Of a DNA stretch of 64,000 bases, positions 16,259-27,886 are shown piece after piece. Location of the stretch: contig NZ_MASU01000014.1 in the NCBI RefSeq assembly GCF_003202235.1, positions 62,001 to 126,000 on the forward strand. The letters run 5' to 3'. The translations under genes were made by a program, and so were the position numbers. Numbering within the stretch: position 1 is the first letter of the stretch; each line of letters starts with the position of its first letter. The notes under the pieces were generated by a model. The model searched no databases and was not told where the DNA came from. It saw only the letters and a program-made list of their open reading frames with translations. Origin of the DNA: Prauserella flavalba. Lineage in GTDB: Bacteria > Actinomycetota > Actinomycetes > Mycobacteriales > Pseudonocardiaceae.

Positions 16259-16353
16259 ACCGCGTCCCAGCTTAACGGGAAGTGTTGCGACCACCGGCCC
16301 GCTGGGACACGCTCGATGCGGAAGATCACGGAAAACCGGACGCTGGGGGCCAC

Positions 16354-19323
16354 GTGATCCGCTACGGCGTTCTCGGGCCGCTGACGGCCGACGGCGAGAG
16401 GGTGTCGCCCGGCCAGCACCGCACCGTGCTCGCCACCCTGCTGATCCAGGCCAACGAGGCCGTGCCCACGAGCACGCTCGTCGACGAGCTGTGGCCGGAC
16501 CGCGCGCCCGGCTCCGCCACGGTGATGGTGCAGATGTGCGTGTCCGGGCTGCGCAAGCTCCTCGCTCCCGGCGTGCCGGCGCGCGACCCGCGCCAGGTGC
16601 TGCGGACGTACCGGGGCGGCTACCGGCTGGAGGTACCGGACGATGCACTCGACCAGGCGAGCTTCCTCGCACTGGCCGAACGCGGGCACCGGCTCGCCGC
16701 CGAGCGCGATCCGAAGGGAGCCGCGCAGGCGCTGCGGGAGGCGCTGGAGCTGTGGCGGGCACCCGCGCTCCAGGACGTCACCGGCGGCGCCGTGGTGAAC
16801 GCGCACGCGACGTGGCTGGACGAACAGCGCGCCGCCGTGCTGGAGCAGCGCATCGCGCTCGACCTCACGCTCGGCGCCCACCGCGCGGTGATCGCCGAGC
16901 TGCGCGGGCAGGTGGCCGCCGAGCCGACCAACGAGGCGCTCGCCGCGCACCTCGTCACCGCGCTCGCCGCCGTGGGCCGTCAGGGTGAGGCGCTGGCGGT
17001 GTTCGAACGGACGCGGGCCGCGCTGGCCACGGAACTGGGCGTGCGGCCGGGGCGCAGGCTGCTCGGCGCCGTCGCCGGGCTGCGCCCCCGGGTCACCGCG
17101 GGCCGCCCGAAACGGGTCGTCCCCGCCCAGCTGCCGCCCGACATCGCCGACTTCACCGGCCGCACGGAGATCGTCGCCGAGATCGGGCGCGCGCTCACCG
17201 CACCGGCGAGCGCGCCGAGGGTGCTCGTGCTGTGCGGCCAGGGCGGGCTCGGCAAGAGCGCGCTCGCCGTGCACGTCGCCCACCTGCTGCGCGAGCGGTT
17301 CCCCGACGCGCAGCTCGTGGCGGGCGACGGGAGCGCGGCCGAGGTGCTGGGACAGTTCCTGCGCGCGCTCGGGGTCACCGACGACGAGCTGCCCTCGGCA
17401 CTGGTGGACCGGCAGCACCTGTGGCGCACCCGCACGGCGTCCTCCCGCGTTCTCGTGCTCGTCGACGGCGCGCGGGACGAGCAGCAGGTGCGGGCACTGC
17501 TGCCCGGCGGCAGCGGCTGCGCGGTGCTGGTGACCAGCCGCAGGCGCCTGCTCGGCCTCGAGGGCGCGCGGACCGTGGAGCTGCCCGAGCTGGCCGAGTC
17601 CGAGGCGCTCGACCTGCTCGCCGCACTGGCCGGGCGGGCCCGCCTCGACGCGGAACCCGGCGAGGCACGCGAGCTGGTGCGGCTCTGCGGTGGGCTGCCC
17701 CTGGCCGTGCGGATCGTCGGCGCGAAGCTCGCCGCCCACGCGCACGAGCCGATCGCCGACCTCGTGGCGAGGCTGGCCGACCGACACCGAGGGCTCGGGG
17801 AGCTGCGCGCCGGCGACCTCGACGTGCGCGCGACCGTGGACGTGAGCTACGCCGAATGCCCGGAACCGCAGCGGCGGGCGCTGCGGCTGCTCGGCCACGC
17901 CGGGCTGCCGACGTGCACGCGCTGGACGGTCGCGACGCTGCTCGACAGCGCCGCCGACACCGCGAGGGACGTGTGCGAGGGGCTCGTCGACGCCCAGCTG
18001 CTACAGGTCGGTGGACGCGACGCGGCCGGGCTCGTGCGCTACCGGCTGCACGACCTCATCGCCGCGTTCGCCGCCGAGCAGGAGGAACCCGGCGCCGCCG
18101 ACGCGATGGAACGGCTCGTGCACGGCTACCTCGCGCTCGCGGGCCGCGCGCACGACAAGCTCAGGGCCAGCCGGTTCCCGCCCGCCGCGCCACCCGCTCC
18201 CGCGACATCGGCGACCGAGCGCGCCGTGCAGGCCGATCCGGGCGGCTGGCGGCACGAGGAGAGCGGCAACCTCGTCGCGCTGACCCGCTGGACCTACCGC
18301 ACCGGCTGGTGGCGGCACACGTGGCAGCTCGCGGACGCGTTCGCGGGGCTGGCCGAGCGGCGCCCCGACGACCCCGGCGTGCGCGACGTGGCCGTGCTCG
18401 GGCTGCTCGCCGCCCGCCGCACCGGCGACCGCAGGGCCGAGGCGATGAGCCTGTGCGCGCTGGGCGACCTGCGCTGGGAGAGCGGGCGCGCCGGGGTCGC
18501 GGCGCGGTACTACGCGCTCGCGAGCACCGCCTTCGAGGAGCTCGGCGACGACCGCGGGCTCGCGCGGGTGCTCACCGCCCGCGCCGACGTCGACATCGAA
18601 CGCGGCAGGCTCGACCGGGCCCGCGAGGACCTGCGCAGGGCGCTGCTGCTCGCGCAGTTGTGCGGCGACCGCCAGTGCCGGGCCGACGCGCTGGACCAGC
18701 TCGGGTCGCTGCTGGCCGACATCGGTGACCTCGCCGCGGCCGAGGACTGCTTCACCAACAGCCGCCAGGTCGCCGAGTCTCTCGGCTCGCTGCGCGGGGT
18801 CGCGCGCGCCGAGAAGCGGCTCGCCGACGTGCTGCGCTGGCGCGGGGAGCACGAGCAGGCACGGGAGCGGCTGGAGACGGCGCTGGAGATCTCGCGCGAG
18901 CACGCCGACGTGCACTGGGAGGCCCACGTGCTGCGCTCGCTGGGCGAGCTGGACCGCGCCACCGGCGACCTCGCCGGCTCGGAACGGTCGCTCACGCGCG
19001 CGTGCGAGCTGTTCACGGAGCTGGGACACCGGCACGCCCGCGCGTACGTCCTGTACTCCCTCGGCGAGTTGTACGCCGACCAGGAACTGCCGGAACGCGC
19101 GGAGCTGAGCCTCGCCGCGTGCAGGCAGGTGTTCCAGGCTCTCGACGACCGGCGCGGGCAGGGGTACGCGCTGCTCGGGCTCGGCAGGCTGTGGGCGCGG
19201 CACGGCGACGGCGACGCCGCGATCGCCACCCTGCGTGCCGCGGCCGGGATCTTCGCCCGGCTCGGCCACCGCCGGTGCGAGCGCACCGCCCTGTCCGCGC
19301 TCGCCGCGGTGACAACGGTCTGA
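16354..19323 (+). CDS. AfsR/SARP family regulator with BTAD, NB-ARC and TPR domains
   Basis: The 989-residue protein starts with GTG (VIRYGVLGPL). The N-terminal winged-helix DNA-binding region and BTAD domain (about residues 1-250) match SARP regulators. An NB-ARC STAND ATPase follows, with P-loop CGQGGLGKSAL (about 297-307), Walker B VLVLVDGA and the GLPLAVRIVGAKL motif. The C-terminal third is TPR repeats. Such proteins activate genes of secondary metabolism or development after ligand- and ATP-driven assembly. No biosynthetic cluster is adjacent. The nearest same-strand targets are the cell-wall hydrolase genes 91 bp downstream, which is only a positional link. Confidence 0.9.
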   Translation: MIRYGVLGPLTADGERVSPGQHRTVLATLLIQANEAVPTSTLVDELWPDRAPGSATVMVQMCVSGLRKLLAPGVPARDPRQVLRTYRGGYRLEVPDDALDQASFLALAERGHRLAAERDPKGAAQALREALELWRAPALQDVTGGAVVNAHATWLDEQRAAVLEQRIALDLTLGAHRAVIAELRGQVAAEPTNEALAAHLVTALAAVGRQGEALAVFERTRAALATELGVRPGRRLLGAVAGLRPRVTAGRPKRVVPAQLPPDIADFTGRTEIVAEIGRALTAPASAPRVLVLCGQGGLGKSALAVHVAHLLRERFPDAQLVAGDGSAAEVLGQFLRALGVTDDELPSALVDRQHLWRTRTASSRVLVLVDGARDEQQVRALLPGGSGCAVLVTSRRRLLGLEGARTVELPELAESEALDLLAALAGRARLDAEPGEARELVRLCGGLPLAVRIVGAKLAAHAHEPIADLVARLADRHRGLGELRAGDLDVRATVDVSYAECPEPQRRALRLLGHAGLPTCTRWTVATLLDSAADTARDVCEGLVDAQLLQVGGRDAAGLVRYRLHDLIAAFAAEQEEPGAADAMERLVHGYLALAGRAHDKLRASRFPPAAPPAPATSATERAVQADPGGWRHEESGNLVALTRWTYRTGWWRHTWQLADAFAGLAERRPDDPGVRDVAVLGLLAARRTGDRRAEAMSLCALGDLRWESGRAGVAARYYALASTAFEELGDDRGLARVLTARADVDIERGRLDRAREDLRRALLLAQLCGDRQCRADALDQLGSLLADIGDLAAAEDCFTNSRQVAESLGSLRGVARAEKRLADVLRWRGEHEQARERLETALEISREHADVHWEAHVLRSLGELDRATGDLAGSERSLTRACELFTELGHRHARAYVLYSLGELYADQELPERAELSLAACRQVFQALDDRRGQGYALLGLGRLWARHGDGDAAIATLRAAAGIFARLGHRRCERTALSALAAVTTV

Positions 19324-19414
19324 CCAGCGGGTTTAAAGAAGCTTTAGGTTTCGTTTAGCGCCAGCCCCTTCTCTGGTGATCGCCGGCACACCGCGACAGA
19401 GAAAGGAGAGAAGC

Positions 19415-19951
19415 GTGCGCAAGACAGCGATCACCACCGCGGCGTCGATCACGGCCGCCGTCGTGCTGCCCTTGCTGGCCGCGGAACCTGCCGCGGCGGC
19501 CTCGCGGCAGGACCTGGCGAAGGACGTACTCGCCGACGACGGCATCACGCTGCTGGACAGCCACGTGAGCGGCAACGACCACCCGGAGTCCACCGCGAAG
19601 CGGAACGTCACCGACACCTCGGAGGGCGACCCGGCCAGAACCAGCCCGTGGAGCGACGTCGGCGTCACCGAGGTCCAGCTGTCGGCCGACATGCTCCGGG
19701 GCATGGTCTCGCTCGGCAAGGACTACTCGTTCCGCGTCACCACGATCGCGGGAGGCGACCACAGCTCCACGTCCTACCACTACGCGGGCACCGCGTTCGA
19801 CGTCGACCGCATCGACGGCGAGGCCGTGGGCTCCGGCAACGGCAAGGTCGGCGACTTCCGGAAGGCGTGCGAGGACCTGGGCGCCACCGAGGTGCTCGGG
19901 CCTGGCGACGCGGGCCACGACACACACATCCACTGCGCTTGGGGGTCCTGA
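19415..19951 (+). CDS. Secreted M15-like zinc peptidase (D-Ala-D-Ala/L-Ala-D-Glu carboxypeptidase-like)
   Basis: The 178-residue protein begins with GTG after a strong GAAAGGAGAG site. It has a signal peptide (RKTAITTAAS..., cleavage near AAAAS). The mature domain has the zinc ligands of M15-type peptidases: SYHYAGTAFDVDR (His and Asp) and the terminal HDTHIHCAW. It should cut peptide crosslinks of peptidoglycan outside the cell. Its TGA overlaps the ATG of the GH25 gene by one base, so the two enzymes are translationally coupled and likely act together on the wall. Confidence 0.8.
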   Translation: MRKTAITTAASITAAVVLPLLAAEPAAAASRQDLAKDVLADDGITLLDSHVSGNDHPESTAKRNVTDTSEGDPARTSPWSDVGVTEVQLSADMLRGMVSLGKDYSFRVTTIAGGDHSSTSYHYAGTAFDVDRIDGEAVGSGNGKVGDFRKACEDLGATEVLGPGDAGHDTHIHCAWGS

Positions 19952-21135
19952 TGGCCGGCAAGAAGCAGCTCTTCGCGCTCGGCTCGGCGACGGCCGTGCT
20001 GTTCGGGGTGCTCGGCGTGCCGGGCGCGCGGGCCGTGGGGAACGCGGAGGACGCGCCCGGCATCGACGTGTCCAACCACAACGGCACGGTCGACTTCGAG
20101 GCGGTCAAGGCCGACGGGCAGGAGTTCGCGTTCGTGCTCGCCACCGACGGCACGTCGTTCACCAGCCCCGAGTTCGACACCCAGTACCAGGGCGCCGCCG
20201 ACGCCGGGCTGATCCGCGGCGCGTACCACTTCGCCAGGCCGGGCAGCGGCGCCGCGGCCGACCAGGCCCAGCGGTTCCTGGAGACCGTGGGCTACTCGGC
20301 CGACGGCACGTCCCTGCCGCCGGTGCTGGACATGGAGGCCAACCCGGACGGCGCCGCGTGCTACGGCCTCAGCGCCGGCGAGATGCGCGACTGGATCAAG
20401 GCGTTCCTCGCCGAGGTCAAGGAGCAGACCGAGCGCGACGGGATCATCTACACCAGCCCGGGCTTCTGGAAGGACTGCACGGGCGACACGAAGGAGTTCA
20501 GCGAGAATCCACTGTGGATCGCCGACTGGGGCGTGGACGAGCCGTCCTCGATCGGCGGCTGGGACGCCCACACGTTCTGGCAGTACAGCGACTCCGGCTC
20601 GGTCGACGGCGTGGACGGCCCGGTGGACGTCAACCGCTTCAACGGCACCGTCGACGAGCTGAAGGCGCTGGCGGCGGGCGCGGCGGCGCGGGGCTCGGCC
20701 GCGCCGGGCGGTGACGTGGCGACGACGGCGGCGATCACGCGCGACGAGGTGATCGACCGGGCGAAGAAGTGGTCCGACGATCCGGTGCCGTACAGCATGG
20801 AGAACTACCACGACGGCTACCGCACCGACTGCTCCGGCTACGTGTCGATGGCCTGGCAGCTGGACACCAGCCTGAGCACCGTGACGCTGCCCGACGTCTC
20901 GCACCCGATCGAGAAGAGCGAGCTGAAGAAGGGCGACATCATCGGCAACCTCGGGCCGGGCACCGGCGGGGCCGCCGGGCACGTCGTGATCTTCGAGAAG
21001 TGGGCCAACGACGACAAGACCGAGTACTGGGCCTACGAGCAGACGCCGCCGGAGACGGTGCACCGCAAGCTGACCTACCCGTACCCGGGCAAGGACGACT
21101 TCGCGCCGCACCGCTTCGACGACATCACCGACTGA
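19951..21135 (+). CDS. Secreted GH25 lysozyme fused to an NlpC/P60-like amidase domain
   Basis: The 394-residue protein has a signal peptide (residues 1-28), then a GH25 muramidase domain at about 35-245 with catalytic acids in GIDVSNHNG and LDMEANPD. An alanine/glycine linker leads to a C-terminal domain with an NlpC/P60-like Cys-His pair, in TDCSGYVSMAW and GHVVIFEKW. It should cut both the glycan strand and an amide or peptide bond. It follows the M15-like peptidase with a 1-bp stop/start overlap. The domain pairing in one chain is unusual. The GH25 assignment is firm; the C-terminal one is good but less certain. Confidence 0.85.
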   Translation: MAGKKQLFALGSATAVLFGVLGVPGARAVGNAEDAPGIDVSNHNGTVDFEAVKADGQEFAFVLATDGTSFTSPEFDTQYQGAADAGLIRGAYHFARPGSGAAADQAQRFLETVGYSADGTSLPPVLDMEANPDGAACYGLSAGEMRDWIKAFLAEVKEQTERDGIIYTSPGFWKDCTGDTKEFSENPLWIADWGVDEPSSIGGWDAHTFWQYSDSGSVDGVDGPVDVNRFNGTVDELKALAAGAAARGSAAPGGDVATTAAITRDEVIDRAKKWSDDPVPYSMENYHDGYRTDCSGYVSMAWQLDTSLSTVTLPDVSHPIEKSELKKGDIIGNLGPGTGGAAGHVVIFEKWANDDKTEYWAYEQTPPETVHRKLTYPYPGKDDFAPHRFDDITD

Positions 21136-22345: not shown

Positions 22346-22441
22346 GTGCACCTCCCGCGTCGCCCACGTCCTCGTGTGGCGCGATCCTACGCGGAAACCG
22401 CCTGTTGACCTTCGAGTCGGTCGAACGCCCAGAATCACCGC

Positions 22442-23470
22442 ATGCACAGCATCAGCGCGTTCGCGCGCCGCGTCGGCCTCACCCCGAGCGCCCTGCGCTT
22501 CTACGACGACTGCGGTGTCCTCGCCCCCGCCAGGGTCGACCCGCTCACCGGCTACCGCTACTACAGCGACGACCAGGTGGAGCGGGCGGTACACCTGCGC
22601 GGGCTGCGGGCCGCGGGGGTTCCGCTCGCCGACGTCACGGCGGTGCTCGACGGCTCTCCCGGGACGGCACGGGAGGTGCTGACCGCGCACGCCGAAAGGC
22701 TGCGTGCGGAGTCCGACGCCGCGCACGCCGCGCTCGGCGCGTTGCTGCGTGGCCTGCCGCCGTCCGGCCCGGTCCGCGTCCGCGTCGGCGGCCCCGAGCT
22801 CGCCAGTGCCGTGCGCCAGGTCGTGCCCGCCGCGGCCCGCGACGGGGAGTTCCCCGAGCTGCGGTGCGTGCTCGTCGAGCTCGCGGACGCCCAGGTGCGC
22901 CTGGTCGCCACCGACCGTTACCGGCTCGCCGTGCGCGAACTACGGCCGCTGGCCGCCGACGGCGGACCGGCCGAGCTGCTGGTGCCCTCCGGCGCGCTCG
23001 TGACGGCCGCGGCGTGGGCGACCCGCAGGCCCGAGGTGACGATCGAGGCGGGACCGGACCCGTGTCTTCGCGCCGATGGCGAGGCCCACCCGCTGCCCGG
23101 CGCCGACGGCGTCTTCCCCGCCTACCGCGAGATGCTGCGTGCCCTCCACGCACCGGTGCACCGCGTGCTCACGGGCCGCGCCGCTTTGCGCGACGCGCTC
23201 GCGGGTCGCGTCCGCTCTGTCCTGCTCGATGTTCGCGCCGACGAGCTCGTGGTCGGCGACGTGACGCTGCCCGCCGTGTGCGCGGGGCCGGTGCGGATCG
23301 CGTTCGACCCGGCGGTGCTCGGTGCCGCGCTGGAGGCGGGTGTGGGGCCGGACGTCCTGCTGGAGATCGCCGCCCCGGACCGCCCCGTGGTGGCGCGCTC
23401 GGCCGACCAGGGCAGCTTCACCACCCTCGTCATGCCCGTCGCCCTTCCCGGAAAGGACAACCGCCCGTGA
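22442..23470 (+). CDS. MerR regulator fused to DNA sliding-clamp (DnaN) domains 2 and 3
   Basis: The 342-residue protein has a MerR helix-turn-helix (residues 1-70; FARRVGLTPSALRFYDD, then GYRYYSDDQ) and a short helical linker (75-105). The remainder resembles the beta clamp. LVELADAQVRLVATDRYRLA (residues 144-163) matches the domain 2 core of actinobacterial DnaN, VFPAYREML (224-232) resembles the domain 2/3 junction, and SFTTLVMPVALPG (325-337) resembles the DnaN C-terminus. Clamp domain 1 is absent and replaced by the MerR domain. A regulator using a clamp-like fold as its ligand or dimerisation module is inferred; a replication role is not shown. It overlaps the next gene by 4 bp (GTGA). 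Confidence 0.85.
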   Translation: MHSISAFARRVGLTPSALRFYDDCGVLAPARVDPLTGYRYYSDDQVERAVHLRGLRAAGVPLADVTAVLDGSPGTAREVLTAHAERLRAESDAAHAALGALLRGLPPSGPVRVRVGGPELASAVRQVVPAAARDGEFPELRCVLVELADAQVRLVATDRYRLAVRELRPLAADGGPAELLVPSGALVTAAAWATRRPEVTIEAGPDPCLRADGEAHPLPGADGVFPAYREMLRALHAPVHRVLTGRAALRDALAGRVRSVLLDVRADELVVGDVTLPAVCAGPVRIAFDPAVLGAALEAGVGPDVLLEIAAPDRPVVARSADQGSFTTLVMPVALPGKDNRP

Positions 23471-24123
23471 ACCCGGACAACCCCGTCGTGCGCCTCTGCG
23501 CAGAGGGCATGGCCGCCGAGGCGAGCGGTGACGACGACGCCGCCCGAGCCCTGTTCGAGCAGGCGTGGGCCGCCGCGACCGACGACTACGAGGCGTGCGT
23601 CGCCGCGCACTACCTCGCCCGGCACCAGCCGACACCCGAGCTGACGCTGCACTGGAACGCGGAGTGCCTGCGGCTGGCCGACCGCGTCGGCGACGAGCGC
23701 GTGGCAGGCTTCTACGCGTCGCTGCACGCCAACCTTGGCCGCTGCCACCGCGACCTCGGCGACCGGGCGGCCGCAGGCGAGCACTTCCGCCTCGCCGCAC
23801 GCCACCTCGCCGACGTGCCGGCCGGGCCCTACCGCGACTGGCTGCGCTACAGCATCGCCGACGGCCTGCGCGGCACCGGCGCGCTCGAACCGTCGGCCGC
23901 GTCGGCCGGTGCCGAGGCGCTGCTGCGTGACCTCTGCGCACGCGGCGACCTGCGGTCCCTGTGCCTGTTGCTGCCCGCCTACTACGGCGACACGGGCTCC
24001 GCAGGCGACCGGCGGCACCTGGCGGAGGCGGCGCGGATGCTGCACGCCGAACGGCGCCTGCCCGCGAGCGACCAGCAACGGCTGGGCGAGATCATCGGGC
24101 TGGCTACGTCTACTGTGGATTGA
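23467..24123 (+). CDS. Tetratricopeptide-like hypothetical protein
   Basis: The 218-residue protein is all-helical. Helix-turn-helix pairs resemble TPR repeats (for example EASGDDDAARALFEQAWAAA, and HANLGRCHRDLGDRAAAGEH). It has no signal peptide or enzymatic motif, and a scaffold or interaction role is inferred. Its GTG overlaps the stop codon of the MerR/clamp fusion gene by 4 bp, so it is translationally coupled and likely a functional partner. The exact family is not recognised. Confidence 0.7.
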   Translation: MNPDNPVVRLCAEGMAAEASGDDDAARALFEQAWAAATDDYEACVAAHYLARHQPTPELTLHWNAECLRLADRVGDERVAGFYASLHANLGRCHRDLGDRAAAGEHFRLAARHLADVPAGPYRDWLRYSIADGLRGTGALEPSAASAGAEALLRDLCARGDLRSLCLLLPAYYGDTGSAGDRRHLAEAARMLHAERRLPASDQQRLGEIIGLATSTVD

Positions 24124-25180: not shown

Positions 25181-26383
25181 TCAGCGCGCGCCGTCGCGGT
25201 GGGCGATCAGGGCGAGCGACAGGGCCAGCGCGGTCCGGTGGTCGTCGAGCGAGTGCCCGAACACGGCCTCCAGCCTGCGCAGCCGGTTGAGCACGGTGTT
25301 GCGGTGGCAGTAGAGCCGCGCGGCCGTGGCCGCCGCGGAGCGGTTGGTCTCCAGCCAGGCCGCGAGCGTCTCGAGCAGCACGTCACGCTCGTTCCCCGGC
25401 AGCCGCAACAGCGGACCCAGCACGCCCGCACGGAGCCGCCGCGCCAGCTCGGGTGAGCGGGCGACGAGCGCCTCGGGCAGCCGCTCGTCGAGCACGGCGA
25501 GCCCGGCCGCTCCGGACGGGAGCGTGCGCAGCGCCAGCAGCGCCAGGTCGTGCGCGACGCCGATCTCCGCGAGCCCCTGGACCTCCGGACTCACGCCCAC
25601 GCGGGCCCGCGCCCCTCCGCGCAGCAGCCCCAGCACGCAGCCCACGGCGCGGCGTTCGAGGGCCACCAGGCCGACCGTGTGCCGGTCCCTCGGTTCCCAG
25701 ACCGACCGGATCCCGTAACCGGCAAGGGTGTCCTGCGGCATGGCGAGCCCGGGCGTGCCGTCGGCGGCCGAGTCGGCCACGAACACCACGTAGGCGCCGT
25801 CGGGGGGAAGGCCCAGCTCGGCGGCGGCCTGCGCGGCGAAGCCGGCCTCCCGGCCACGGCCGCGCAGCAGGTCGCCGACCAGCGACTGCCGCCGGTGGTC
25901 GTCGAGCCTGCGCAGCTGCAGCTCGGTGTCGCGGTAGGCGCGCGCGACGACGGACGACGCCTCGTCCACCACCGTCCACAAGGTGGTCGCGAGGTCGAGC
26001 AGCCGGTCGCGGTCGATGTCGTCGCTCTCCTTCCCGATCCGCACGAGCCCCCGCCACAGGACGCGCCCGCCGAGCCGGAACGAACGCAGCACGGAGTCCA
26101 GCGGCACCCGCTGCTCGGCCCTGCGCGAGCCGGTGACGGCCGCCGCGTCGTAGGCGTCCTCGCCCCGGGGAACCGTGTCGCCGAGCAGTTGCAGCACGCG
26201 CTCCAGGTTGGCGCGGCACGACCTGTGCAGCTCGGCGAGTGTGACCAGCGCGGCGTCGTGGTAGCCGGGGTTCTCCGCGAGGATGTCGGCGACGAGCTCG
26301 TCAGCGAGCTGGTCGAGCCGGCCGACGAGGGCTCGCGCCAGCTGCTCGGCGAGATCGGCCACGCGGACTCCTCGGTTCGGCAT
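25181..26383 (-). CDS. PucR-type transcriptional regulator (CdaR/PucR C-terminal HTH)
   Basis: The 400-residue protein has an N-terminal RsbRD/GGDEF-like sensory region. Its C-terminal PucR helix-turn-helix is marked by LAAWLETNRSAAATAARLYC followed by HRNTVLNRLRRLE. Such regulators often control purine, sugar-acid or amino-acid catabolism. ATG at 26383 is preferred; a GTG at 26410 would add nine residues and cannot be excluded, because neither has a strong ribosome binding site. It is divergent from the Bcr/CflA efflux gene, its likeliest target. The ligand is unknown. Confidence 0.8.
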   Translation of the reverse strand: MPNRGVRVADLAEQLARALVGRLDQLADELVADILAENPGYHDAALVTLAELHRSCRANLERVLQLLGDTVPRGEDAYDAAAVTGSRRAEQRVPLDSVLRSFRLGGRVLWRGLVRIGKESDDIDRDRLLDLATTLWTVVDEASSVVARAYRDTELQLRRLDDHRRQSLVGDLLRGRGREAGFAAQAAAELGLPPDGAYVVFVADSAADGTPGLAMPQDTLAGYGIRSVWEPRDRHTVGLVALERRAVGCVLGLLRGGARARVGVSPEVQGLAEIGVAHDLALLALRTLPSGAAGLAVLDERLPEALVARSPELARRLRAGVLGPLLRLPGNERDVLLETLAAWLETNRSAAATAARLYCHRNTVLNRLRRLEAVFGHSLDDHRTALALSLALIAHRDGAR

Positions 26384-26541
26384 CGCAACGGGCCATCGAC
26401 GATAGGACACCTCGCCGGGCGGCCGCCCCCGCCACGGTCAGAAGGCCACCGGCACGTCAGCCCATTCATCGAGAACCATCGCGCGCCTCCTCGCCGGGGT
26501 CGTTCGCTCGAGGTGCCCCCACGGGTCCAAACGTGCTAGAC

Positions 26542-26635: not shown

Positions 26636-27886
26636 GTGAGCGCGAGCACGGACGTCGAACAGCCAGTGACCTCCCCGAAACGAATGCGCACCGCACGCTA
26701 CGCGCTCGTGCTCGGCGGGCTCACCGCGTTCGGCCCGCTGTCGATCGACATGTACCTGCCCGCGCTGCCCGCGATGGCGCGGGACCTGCACGCCGGCGAC
26801 GCCACGCTGCAGCTGACGCTCGCCGCGTTCGTGCTCGGCGTCGGCGCGGGTCAGCTCGTGCTCGGCCCGCTGTCCGACGCGTTCGGCAGGCGCAAACCGC
26901 TGCTCGCCGGCGTCGCGCTGTTCGTCGTCGGGTCCCTGTTGTGCGTGGTGAGTCCCTCGGTGGAGCTGCTGATCGCGGCCAGGGTCCTCCAGGCGTTCGG
27001 CGCCTCGGCCGGCATGGTGATCGCCCGCGCGGCCGTGCGCGACCTGTTCTCCGGCATCGCGATGGCCCGGTTCTTCTCGATGCTCATGCTGGTCACCGGG
27101 CTCGCCCCGATCCTCGCGCCCGTGCTCGGCGGGCAGCTGCTCTCGCTGACGTCGTGGCGGGGCATCTTCGGAGCGCTGGCCGCGTTCGGCGCGCTGCTGC
27201 TCATCGTCGCCGCGTTCGCCCTGCCCGAGACGCTGCCCGCGCACCGGCGCAGGCCCGCGAGACCCGCGAGCGTGCTGCGCGGCTACCTGAGCCTGCTGCG
27301 CGACCGCGTCTTCGTCGGCTACGCGCTCGGTCTCGGGCTGTCGTTCGCCGCGATGTTCACCTACATCTCGGCGTCGTCGTTCGTGCTCCAGGGCGCCTAT
27401 GGCCTCAGCCCGCAGCAGTACAGCCTCGTCTTCGGCGGCGGCGCCGTCGGGCTCGTGCTGGCGAGCCAGGTCAACGGCAGGCTCGTCGGCCGGTTCCGCC
27501 AGCACACGCTGCTCGTCACCGGGCTGCTGGCCGGCACCGTGGGCGCGCTCGCGATGGTCGTCGCCTCACTGTCCGGGCTCGGGCTGGGCGGGGTGCTGCC
27601 GCCGCTGTTCGTCGCGGTCGCCGGTGCCGGGTTCGTGATGCCCAACGCGACGTCGCTCGCGCTCGCCGACCACCCGGAGCTGGCCGGGTCGGCGTCGGCC
27701 CTGCTGGGCGTGCTGCAGTTCACCGTCGGCGGGCTGACCTCGCCCCTCGCCGGGCTCGCCGGCGGGGACTCGGCACTGCCGATGGCGCTGCTCATGGCCG
27801 CACTCGCCGGGCTGGGTCTGCTCAGCGTCGGCACGCTCGCCCGGCGGCGTGGCTCAGACCAGCTCGCCGAGGTCGGCGTCGCGTAG
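26636..27886 (+). CDS. Bcr/CflA family multidrug efflux MFS transporter
   Basis: The 416-residue integral membrane protein has 12 predicted transmembrane segments. Its N-terminal motif GPLSIDMYLPALPAMARDL is typical of Bcr/CflA drug:H+ antiporters. The MFS motif A follows as GPLSDAFGRRKPLL, and ARVLQAFGASAGMVIARA is the family's TM4 region. It should export drugs or metabolites using the proton gradient. It starts with GTG and no strong ribosome binding site is visible. Its 3' end overlaps the convergent flavin reductase gene by 33 bp. The divergent PucR-type gene may regulate it. Confidence 0.9.
   Translation: MSASTDVEQPVTSPKRMRTARYALVLGGLTAFGPLSIDMYLPALPAMARDLHAGDATLQLTLAAFVLGVGAGQLVLGPLSDAFGRRKPLLAGVALFVVGSLLCVVSPSVELLIAARVLQAFGASAGMVIARAAVRDLFSGIAMARFFSMLMLVTGLAPILAPVLGGQLLSLTSWRGIFGALAAFGALLLIVAAFALPETLPAHRRRPARPASVLRGYLSLLRDRVFVGYALGLGLSFAAMFTYISASSFVLQGAYGLSPQQYSLVFGGGAVGLVLASQVNGRLVGRFRQHTLLVTGLLAGTVGALAMVVASLSGLGLGGVLPPLFVAVAGAGFVMPNATSLALADHPELAGSASALLGVLQFTVGGLTSPLAGLAGGDSALPMALLMAALAGLGLLSVGTLARRRGSDQLAEVGVA

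What the first reader, a model, noticed from the sequence alone, without database searches (positions are those of the whole stretch)
22442..23470. MerR DNA-binding domain replaces domain 1 of a sliding-clamp-like protein
After a normal MerR helix-turn-helix, residues 115-337 align by eye with domains 2 and 3 of the actinobacterial beta clamp DnaN, including VATDRYRLAVREL and the C-terminal TTLVMPV. A clamp has three domains per chain; here one of them is replaced by a DNA-binding domain. This could be a regulator that uses the clamp fold to dimerise or to bind clamp-interacting peptides, tying gene control to replication or repair. I believe similar proteins are annotated in other actinobacteria but know of no characterised function.
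Basis: partly seen in the sequence, partly recalled or inferred. Interest (0 to 1): 0.75.

Follow-up and report, generated by a model that had tools for sequence, protein, structure and literature searches.

The report
MerR regulator with sliding-clamp sensor domain
A bacterial gene switch has a sensor built from two thirds of a DNA-replication ring: the sequence suggests that it has lost the ring's DNA-gripping and ring-closing features but kept much of the pocket where replication proteins and some antibiotics dock, so it may detect and mop up such molecules.

Summary
Window 22442-23470 (+) encodes 342 aa: a MerR helix-turn-helix (Pfam 9.4e-15), a long helix, then domains 2-3 of a beta clamp (DNA_pol3_beta_2 2.7e-8; AlphaFold pLDDT 93; best PDB folds mycobacterial DnaN, E 1.6e-17). 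It belongs to a widespread actinobacterial family; my literature searches listed no study of it. New here: (1) a MerR-type promoter (TTGACC, 19-bp spacer with dyad, -10) just before the start; TTGACC upstream in 77 of 78 loci; the site is unique in the 8.1-Mb genome. (2) A TPR gene, overlapping by 4 bases here, follows in 58 of 77 loci; in 4 of 5 genomes with only a distant detached TPR homologue, that gene has its own operator copy. (3) The clamp part kept subsite I of the peptide pocket (8 of 8 DnaN-conserved positions, against 5-6 of 14 others) but lost the channel's basic residues and most of the ring interface. Most likely it is a TipA-like autoregulated sensor, perhaps also a decoy, for clamp-pocket ligands; clamp-binding peptide antibiotics are my leading guess. 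Endogenous replication or repair proteins are a close rival: dnaB lies upstream in 22 of 78 loci. A ring is unlikely. The ligand is untested.

The parts
22405..22435 (+). MerR-type promoter/operator: -35 TTGACC (22405-22410), 19-bp spacer with dyad TTCGA-gtcgg-TCGAA (22411-22429), -10 CAGAAT (22430-22435); ATG follows 6 bases later, so the transcript is probably leaderless
   Evidence: Sequence. TTGACC in 77 of 78 upstream regions of 250 bp, window included; dyad 6.0 of 9 pairs against 2.3 in shuffles, first ATG/GTG (any frame) 7 bases after the -10 in 63 of 77. Only site in the own genome at up to 3 mismatches.
22442..23470 (+). MerR-clamp regulator gene, 342 aa (stop included in the coordinates)
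22442..22651 (+). MerR winged helix-turn-helix DNA-binding domain (residues 1-70)
   Evidence: Pfam MerR_1 and MerR; helices in the model
22658..22753 (+). Long helix (residues 73-104), expected MerR dimerisation coiled coil
   Evidence: Helix 73-104 in the model; dimer role inferred from MerR family knowledge
22772..23152 (+). Clamp domain 2 (residues about 111-237), with pocket residues L140, T157, R159, Y160, R161, L162, P226
   Evidence: (DNA_pol3_beta_2), (residue map); borders approximate
23159..23440 (+). Clamp domain 3 (residues about 240-333), with pocket residues L329, M331, P332, V333; subsite II altered (D289, V292, A334)
   Evidence: alignment, strands, residue map; borders approximate
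23467..24123 (+). TPR-like protein, 218 aa, start GTG overlaps the regulator's stop (GTGA, 4 bases)
   Evidence: homologue adjacent in 58 of 77 loci (some matches partial); weak TPR hits below cut-off; model pLDDT 96.5, all-helical; nearest folds TPR superhelices

Best explanation
It is an autoregulated MerR-type activator whose sensor is the peptide-binding pocket of a clamp half. SHOWN by sequence: MerR domain; clamp domains 2-3; conserved MerR-type promoter at its own start; a TPR gene directly downstream, and operator copies before 4 of 5 distant detached TPR homologues. INFERRED: the MerR helix makes a dimer that sits on the over-long 19-bp spacer; a ligand entering the kept clamp pocket changes the dimer and realigns -35 and -10, raising transcription of the regulator and the TPR protein. 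The extra regulator then also soaks up the ligand, as TipAL/TipAS does. MOST LIKELY LIGAND (guess): a molecule that inhibits the real clamp by filling the same pocket, such as the griselimycin/mycoplanecin peptides; the cell would sense the drug with a copy of its target. The TPR protein's job (protein-protein adaptor) is unknown.
For: Pocket: of 22 alignable clamp positions conserved in at least 26 of 29 DnaN (3 more were not alignable), subsite I keeps 8 of 8 in over 80% of 78 members, against 5 of 14 others (Fisher p 0.004); with a 50% cut-off p is 0.009, 0.02 and 0.095 in subfamilies A, B and C. Pocket positions score higher in conservation than the rest of the clamp part (17 against 188, p 4e-4). 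Channel positions 198 and 205 are basic in 25 and 27 of 29 DnaN but 5 and 2 of 78 here. Operator; B 15 of 16 and C 24 of 24 loci carry a TTGAC[C/T] site. TPR link in cis and in trans. TipA-class regulators are a 'minimal autoregulated' multidrug resistance system joining sensor, activator and neutraliser (PMC7762955, abstract and passages). Mycoplanecin A and griselimycins fill both subsites of the E. coli DnaN pocket (PMC10817943, passages).
Against: No ligand or DNA binding was tested. Subsite II is changed in A and B (in A: N320 to D in 76 of 78; Y/F323 to V in 72 of 78; R365 kept in 34 of 78), so binding may differ from DnaN's; only C keeps it. The pocket test is not significant in C alone (p 0.095). 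Transporter genes do lie in the flanks of some A loci (MATE 17, MFS 8, ABC 8, MacB-like 4 of 78), but none in B or C, and they go with local synteny; no dnaN-like gene was found at E 1e-20; antibiotic clusters were not searched for. dnaB in 22 of 78 loci points rather to replication. No conserved internal start for a clamp-only short form was seen. The TPR gene is absent at E 1e-6 from 13 of the 19 genomes lacking an adjacent one and from the fetched stretches of 24 of 24 C loci, so it is not required. A similar site lies before a different MerR gene (L202).
Confidence: 0.38

Rival explanations
1. The pocket senses the cell's own clamp-binding proteins (for example translesion polymerases ImuB/DnaE2/DinB, or free replication subunits), so the regulator reports replication stress or DNA damage and switches on the TPR protein.
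For: The clamp pocket's natural ligands are short motifs of such proteins (review PMC11139829, passages). A dnaB replicative helicase gene lies upstream on the same strand, 76 bp to 5.4 kb away, in 22 of 78 A loci: 20 Streptomyces, one Streptoalloteichus, one Actinorugispora. One plasmid copy (L194) has dnaE and a Y-family polymerase about 2.5 kb upstream. Subfamily C keeps the whole pocket.
Against: dnaB is absent from the flanks of the other 56 A, 16 B and 24 C loci, and a shared old gene order would explain it as well; the polymerase neighbour is 1 of 126 sequences. Subsite II is altered in A and B. The only operator found in the own genome is its own promoter, so no repair gene appears in the regulon there. 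Abundant clamp-binding proteins would be expected to keep it switched on (inference).
Confidence: 0.31
2. The clamp half is a scaffold or senses an unrelated small molecule; the pocket residues are kept for folding or for packing against the MerR part.
For: Family-specific invariant residues lie elsewhere too (R125, Q126, R241, R246, 302-304, 319-328 in A). Subsite II is not kept in A and B. pTM 0.77 leaves the domain arrangement open.
Against: 8 of 8 DnaN-conserved subsite I positions are kept against 5 of 14 others in A; M362, P242, T172 and R176 are kept in nearly all members of all three subfamilies (position 175 is Y or H in C), though they line a ligand pocket in DnaN.
Confidence: 0.22
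3. It forms a clamp-like ring (a dimer, or three two-domain chains as in PCNA) or caps the real clamp, tying transcription to replication physically.
For: Two clamp domains per chain is the PCNA count; hydrophobic position 272 is kept in 76 of 78 (A), 16 of 16 (B), 24 of 24 (C); 304 is still acidic in 10 of 24 C; R269 in 55 of 78 A.
Against: Position 273 is hydrophobic in 27 of 29 DnaN but 8 of 78 A, 0 of 16 B, 0 of 24 C; 304 acidic in 26 of 29 against 1 of 78 A and 1 of 16 B; 298 and 300 have no aligned column; channel basic residues lost in all three.
Confidence: 0.04
4. Ordinary or artefactual: a chance likeness or a mis-assembled fusion.
For: None found.
Against: 77 further loci with the same fusion, copies in four plasmid records marked complete, significant profile and fold matches.
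Confidence: 0.01

Closest known systems
TipA class of MerR regulators (TipAL/TipAS, SkgA; PMC7762955)
   Same: MerR DNA-binding domain, coiled coil, C-terminal ligand domain; operator at its own promoter; architecture suits a combined sensor and sink
   Different: Sensor is a beta-clamp half, not the TipAS fold (no PF07739 hit); drug binding unproven; no conserved internal start for a short form found
BmrR/AlbA-type MerR regulators with GyrI-like or other drug-binding domains (recalled; AlbA paper PMC6078987 seen only in the search listing with the start of its abstract)
   Same: MerR domain with a modular C-terminal ligand domain
   Different: No GyrI-like hit; the clamp domain is homologous to the very target of known antibiotics
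Bacterial beta sliding clamp DnaN (PF02767; TIGR00663)
   Same: Domains 2-3 and subsite I of the peptide pocket
   Different: Domain 1 absent, ring interface mostly lost, channel basic residues lost, MerR fused in front
GriR/MypR, second clamps linked to self-resistance to griselimycin/mycoplanecin (PMC10817943, passages)
   Same: A clamp copy outside replication proposed to deal with clamp-targeting peptides
   Different: Those are spare DnaN genes in or near the antibiotic clusters; this is a transcription factor with only two clamp domains

Membership tests
MerR family regulators | N-terminal MerR winged HTH | tested here: met
   PF13411 9.4e-15, PF00376 8.4e-9, both above cut-off
MerR family regulators | Target promoter with over-long 19-20 bp spacer holding a dyad (rule recalled) | tested here: met
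   Own promoter TTGACC-N19-CAGAAT; 77 of 78 loci carry TTGACC upstream, dyad test; that the protein binds it is not shown
MerR family regulators | Homodimer through a coiled coil, ligand-dependent activation | not testable with these tools
   Helix 73-104 predicted; no complex modelling or assay
Beta sliding clamp (DnaN) | Three clamp domains per chain | tested here: not met
   Only domains 2-3
Beta sliding clamp (DnaN) | Ring-closing interface of domain 3 (residues from PMC11139829) | tested here: not met
   273 hydrophobic in 8 of 78, 304 acidic in 1 of 78, 298/300 unaligned; but 272 hydrophobic in 76 of 78
Beta sliding clamp (DnaN) | Basic DNA channel | tested here: not met
   198 and 205 basic in 5 and 2 of 78 against 25 and 27 of 29 DnaN; choice of these two positions is recalled
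Beta sliding clamp (DnaN) | Peptide-binding pocket (residue list from PMC11139829) | tested here: inconclusive
   DnaN-conserved positions kept in at least half the members: subsite I 8 of 8 (A, B), 7 of 8 (C); subsite II 1 of 3 (A, B), 3 of 3 (C)
TipA class | TipAS ligand domain | tested here: not met
   No PF07739 match at E up to 1
TipA class | Autoregulation | tested here: inconclusive
   Operator at own promoter, unique in genome; not shown experimentally
TipA class | Short ligand-domain isoform from an internal start | tested here: inconclusive
   GTG or TTG at aligned residue 79 in 41 and GTG at 127 in 50 of 78, neither at the domain border; ribosome-binding sites not examined

The most novel reading that the evidence does not exclude
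A transcription factor made by grafting a MerR DNA-binding domain on two thirds of the replication clamp works as a target-mimic sensor and decoy: antibiotics that poison the real clamp bind the copy's pocket, switch on their own sink and a TPR partner. As far as my searches show it would be the first known sensor for clamp-targeting drugs and the first regulator with a sliding-clamp ligand domain.
Probability: 0.3. Interest if true: 0.85.

Novelty: new variant of a known kind. Interest (0 to 1): 0.62.

Why it matters
If the pocket is the sensor, a core replication part has been recycled as a ligand-binding domain, and a ready-made biosensor exists for finding new clamp inhibitors, a sought antibiotic class (griselimycin type), or for reading replication stress. 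The prediction is testable with one reporter: promoter 22405-22435 plus the gene. It also gives a family so far named only 'MerR regulator' in the records seen a concrete predicted regulon (itself plus a TPR protein).

Tried and rejected
Ring or PCNA-like trimer: disfavoured on interface and channel residues. Regulon of repair or efflux genes: the operator was searched for in the own genome and only the own promoter was found; in 25 other genomes at up to 1 mismatch, 19 have one site, 5 have two or three and 1 has none. I looked at some of the extra sites: a TPR gene in S. lavendulae, a different MerR gene in L202, a contig end in L201; three others were not followed. In G681 the single site is the one before the TPR gene. 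Neighbours (coarse GC-based gene calling, which missed the window's own regulator and TPR gene; families): an FMN-dependent dehydrogenase cluster (9 loci) and MFS transporter near the window and its relatives; in a Streptomyces group dnaB, MATE, a beta-lactamase-fold gene, an aminotransferase, GNAT and MarR genes; ABC and MacB-like genes in a few. By tblastn: dnaB 22, MATE 17, beta-lactamase fold 20, aminotransferase 16, MFS 8, ABC 8, MacB-like 4 of 78 A loci, none of these in 16 B or 24 C loci. I read these as mostly shared gene order, not as a conserved operon; some smaller clusters were not identified. TipAS-like internal start: no good candidate. Origin of the clamp part: the tree puts all DnaN (29 rows of the phylum plus E. 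coli) on one side of a branch (100/97) and the fusions outside, so the donor lineage stays open; 12 of 78 A, 10 of 16 B and 10 of 24 C rows were used. Polymerase neighbours: 1 of 126 sequences. A first TPR scan used a wrong frame and was redone.

Literature: the listings of full-text searches (25 of 36 papers shown; 20 of 47; 11; 2; 2; 8 of 29) showed no title on a MerR-clamp fusion; searches found no paper. The library lacks most subscription papers, so 'unstudied' is limited to these searches.

Dropped rows: of 80 loci, L081 (split frames), L086 and L087 (partial) were left out, giving 77 plus the window protein = 78. The structure alignment used 66 of the 77; the TPR alignment 50 of 58. DnaN comparison: 29 of 30 loci fetched. 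In one search, 113 of 394 genomes match, but by my reading of its table only 29 span both parts; most of the rest match only the clamp part (DnaN) or only the MerR part. In one search, 84 of 298 match and three of these match only the clamp part. (single sequence, E 1e-30): 9 of 396. In these searches at most 5-6 candidates per genome were scored, so counts are lower bounds.

Full report
OBSERVATION. The ORF at 22442-23470 (+) encodes 342 residues. Residues 3-70 are a MerR helix-turn-helix and 119-195 match the central domain of the DNA polymerase III beta subunit, both above Pfam's cut-off. Sequence search of PDB chains finds mycobacterial DnaN first (5ah2, 8e-12). A profile of 78 family members matches the genome's own DnaN, best stretch 129-374, and E. 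coli DnaN, best stretch 153-365. The AlphaFold2 model (pLDDT 93.0, pTM 0.77) has DnaN as best PDB matches (8djq, E 1.6e-17).

FAMILY. A scan of named genomes gave 80 loci, actinobacterial by their record titles; 77 are full-length. The nearest, at 86% identity, is from Prauserella endophytica, so the window is from a Prauserella-like organism (inference). In the same order 84 of 298 genomes match, three of them with the clamp part only; in the class 29 of 394 span both parts by my reading of the table. I sorted the sequences in three subfamilies: A (the window and the 77), B (16 loci) and C (24 loci). The B/C split follows which loci I fetched and their operators; the tree makes C one group (100/100) but puts one B row (L184) among A. 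The seven plasmid records with at least 80% coverage are annotated 'MerR family transcriptional regulator'. None of the 9 phage records matched covers more than the MerR part.

PROMOTER. Just before the ATG lies TTGACC-ttcgagtcggtcgaacgcc-CAGAAT: a 19-bp spacer with a dyad, the mark of MerR-activated promoters (the 19-20 bp rule is established knowledge). TTGACC is present in 77 of 78 upstream stretches of 250 bp (all but L012), and over these 77 the pattern TTGACCTTC-N2-G-N2-G-N2-YGAA-N5-A-N-AAT is nearly fixed. The dyad pairs 6.0 of 9 positions against 2.3 in shuffles (at most 2.66 in 200), and in 63 of 77 the first ATG/GTG in any frame follows the -10 by 7 bases, so transcripts are probably leaderless. 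B (15 of 16) and C (24 of 24) loci carry a TTGAC[C/T] site 47-83 bases before the aligned start, in C mostly TTGACCCTCGACC-N-GGTCGAG. In the own 8.1-Mb genome the window site is the only one at up to 3 mismatches or with a looser pattern at up to 2; the reversed-pattern control finds none.

PARTNER. The next gene (23467-24123) overlaps the regulator's stop by GTGA and encodes a 218-aa protein with TPR hits below cut-off, modelled as all-helical (pLDDT 96.5), nearest to TPR superhelices, the best at E 0.001. A homologue follows in 58 of 77 loci, some matches partial, and a TPR-model hit is present in 8 of 16 B and 0 of 24 C stretches. Of 19 genomes whose MerR-clamp locus lacks it, 13 have no homologue at E 1e-6, one (58% identity) has it beside a second MerR-clamp copy that is in pieces, and five have a distant detached homologue at 32-37% identity. 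In four of these five (Amycolatopsis thermalba, A. deserti, A. tucumanensis, Streptomyces lavendulae) the detached gene has a copy of the operator just upstream; in the fifth (S. milbemycinicus) none was seen. So the operator joins the two genes even when they are apart. A B-type paralogue might be the regulator acting there.

NEIGHBOURS. Beyond the TPR gene no neighbour is general. In 22 of 78 A loci a dnaB replicative helicase gene lies upstream on the same strand (20 Streptomyces, Streptoalloteichus tenebrarius, Actinorugispora endophytica; 76 bp to 5.4 kb), with a MATE transporter present in 17 of 78; the window and some relatives have an MFS transporter (8 of 78); none of these is in B or C stretches, and no dnaN-like gene was found at E 1e-20. 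This may be old gene order or a sign of a replication role; I cannot tell.

POCKET, CHANNEL, RING. Pocket residues were taken from a review (PMC11139829, passages). Of 22 alignable positions conserved in at least 26 of 29 DnaN of the phylum, all 8 of subsite I are kept in over 80% of 78 family members, against 1 of 3 in subsite II and 4 of 11 elsewhere (Fisher p 0.004). At a 50% cut-off A gives 8/8 against 6/14 (p 0.009), B 8/8 against 7/14 (p 0.02), C 7/8 against 7/14 (p 0.095). Subsite II is re-shaped in A (N320 to D in 76 of 78, Y/F323 to V in 72 of 78, R365 kept in 34 of 78), re-shaped otherwise in B, and DnaN-like in C. Channel positions 198 and 205 are basic in 25 and 27 of 29 DnaN but 5 and 2 of 78 in A, 0 and 0 of 16 in B, 0 and 1 of 24 in C. 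Interface position 273 is hydrophobic in 27 of 29 DnaN and 8 of 78, 0 of 16, 0 of 24; 304 is acidic in 26 of 29 and 1 of 78, 1 of 16, 10 of 24; 272 stays hydrophobic in 76 of 78, 16 of 16, 24 of 24. On balance the fold kept a binding pocket and lost most of what a ring on DNA needs.

MECHANISM. The anatomy is that of TipA regulators, described as a minimal autoregulated multidrug resistance system (PMC7762955, abstract and passages). I infer that a ligand of the clamp pocket switches the MerR dimer on its over-long spacer and raises its own synthesis. Clamp-binding peptide antibiotics fill both pocket subsites of DnaN (PMC10817943, passages), and griselimycins are made by a Streptomyces (PMC5676206, start of abstract in the listing), so a target-mimic sensor and decoy is the leading guess. 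Endogenous clamp-binding proteins are a close rival: dnaB upstream in 22 of 78, and a linear plasmid copy near dnaE and a Y-family polymerase (1 of 126 sequences). A scaffold role cannot be excluded. No binding, expression or ligand experiment was possible.

NOVELTY. Each half is known and the fusion is visible to annotation pipelines, but the searches told under Tried and rejected listed no study of it. I file it as a new variant of the MerR kind. The promoter, the TPR regulon in cis and in trans, and the contrast of kept pocket and lost ring were not seen in print in those listings.

Noticed in passing
L024, L025, L033, L034, L042, L049, L050, L051, L052, L057, L060, L061, L064, L069, L070, L073, L074, L075, L080, L082, L083, L088: dnaB (replicative helicase) lies upstream of the MerR-clamp gene on the same strand in these 22 of 78 loci, from three actinobacterial genera, often with a MATE transporter behind it.
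   Followed up: partly
L194 1-3469 (plasmid pADI95-16b, Streptomyces sp. ADI95-16): A plasmid-borne dnaE and a Y-family polymerase gene (IMS_C 1.5e-21) lie about 2.5 kb upstream of a MerR-clamp gene with its short TPR partner.
   Followed up: partly
L151-L170 and L187-L190: Subfamily C genes keep a DnaN-like pocket in both subsites; in 7 of 24 loci a seryl-tRNA-synthetase-like gene (recognised by eye) lies nearby, and no TPR gene is in the stretch.
   Followed up: partly
L203 (Streptomyces sp. ISL-87, also L086): A second MerR-clamp copy in pieces on several open frames, with a long TPR reading frame behind it.
   Followed up: no
L202: A similar TTGACCTTC operator-like site stands before a different MerR gene whose match to the family is confined to the MerR part, so related MerR regulators may share operator letters.
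   Followed up: no
window 16282-19323 +: AfsR/SARP-like regulator with BTAD, NB-ARC and TPR domains (1013 aa).
   Followed up: no
window 19951-21135 +: GH25 muramidase domain followed by a C-terminal part of about 170 residues with DCSGYV and HVVIF stretches that look like an NlpC/P60-type or amidase domain by eye, with no Pfam hit.
   Followed up: no
window 19376-19951 +: Putative secreted protein of 191 aa with no Pfam hit directly before the GH25 gene.
   Followed up: no
window 25181-26410 - and 26636-27886 +: PucR-type regulator (HTH_30) divergent from an MFS transporter.
   Followed up: no
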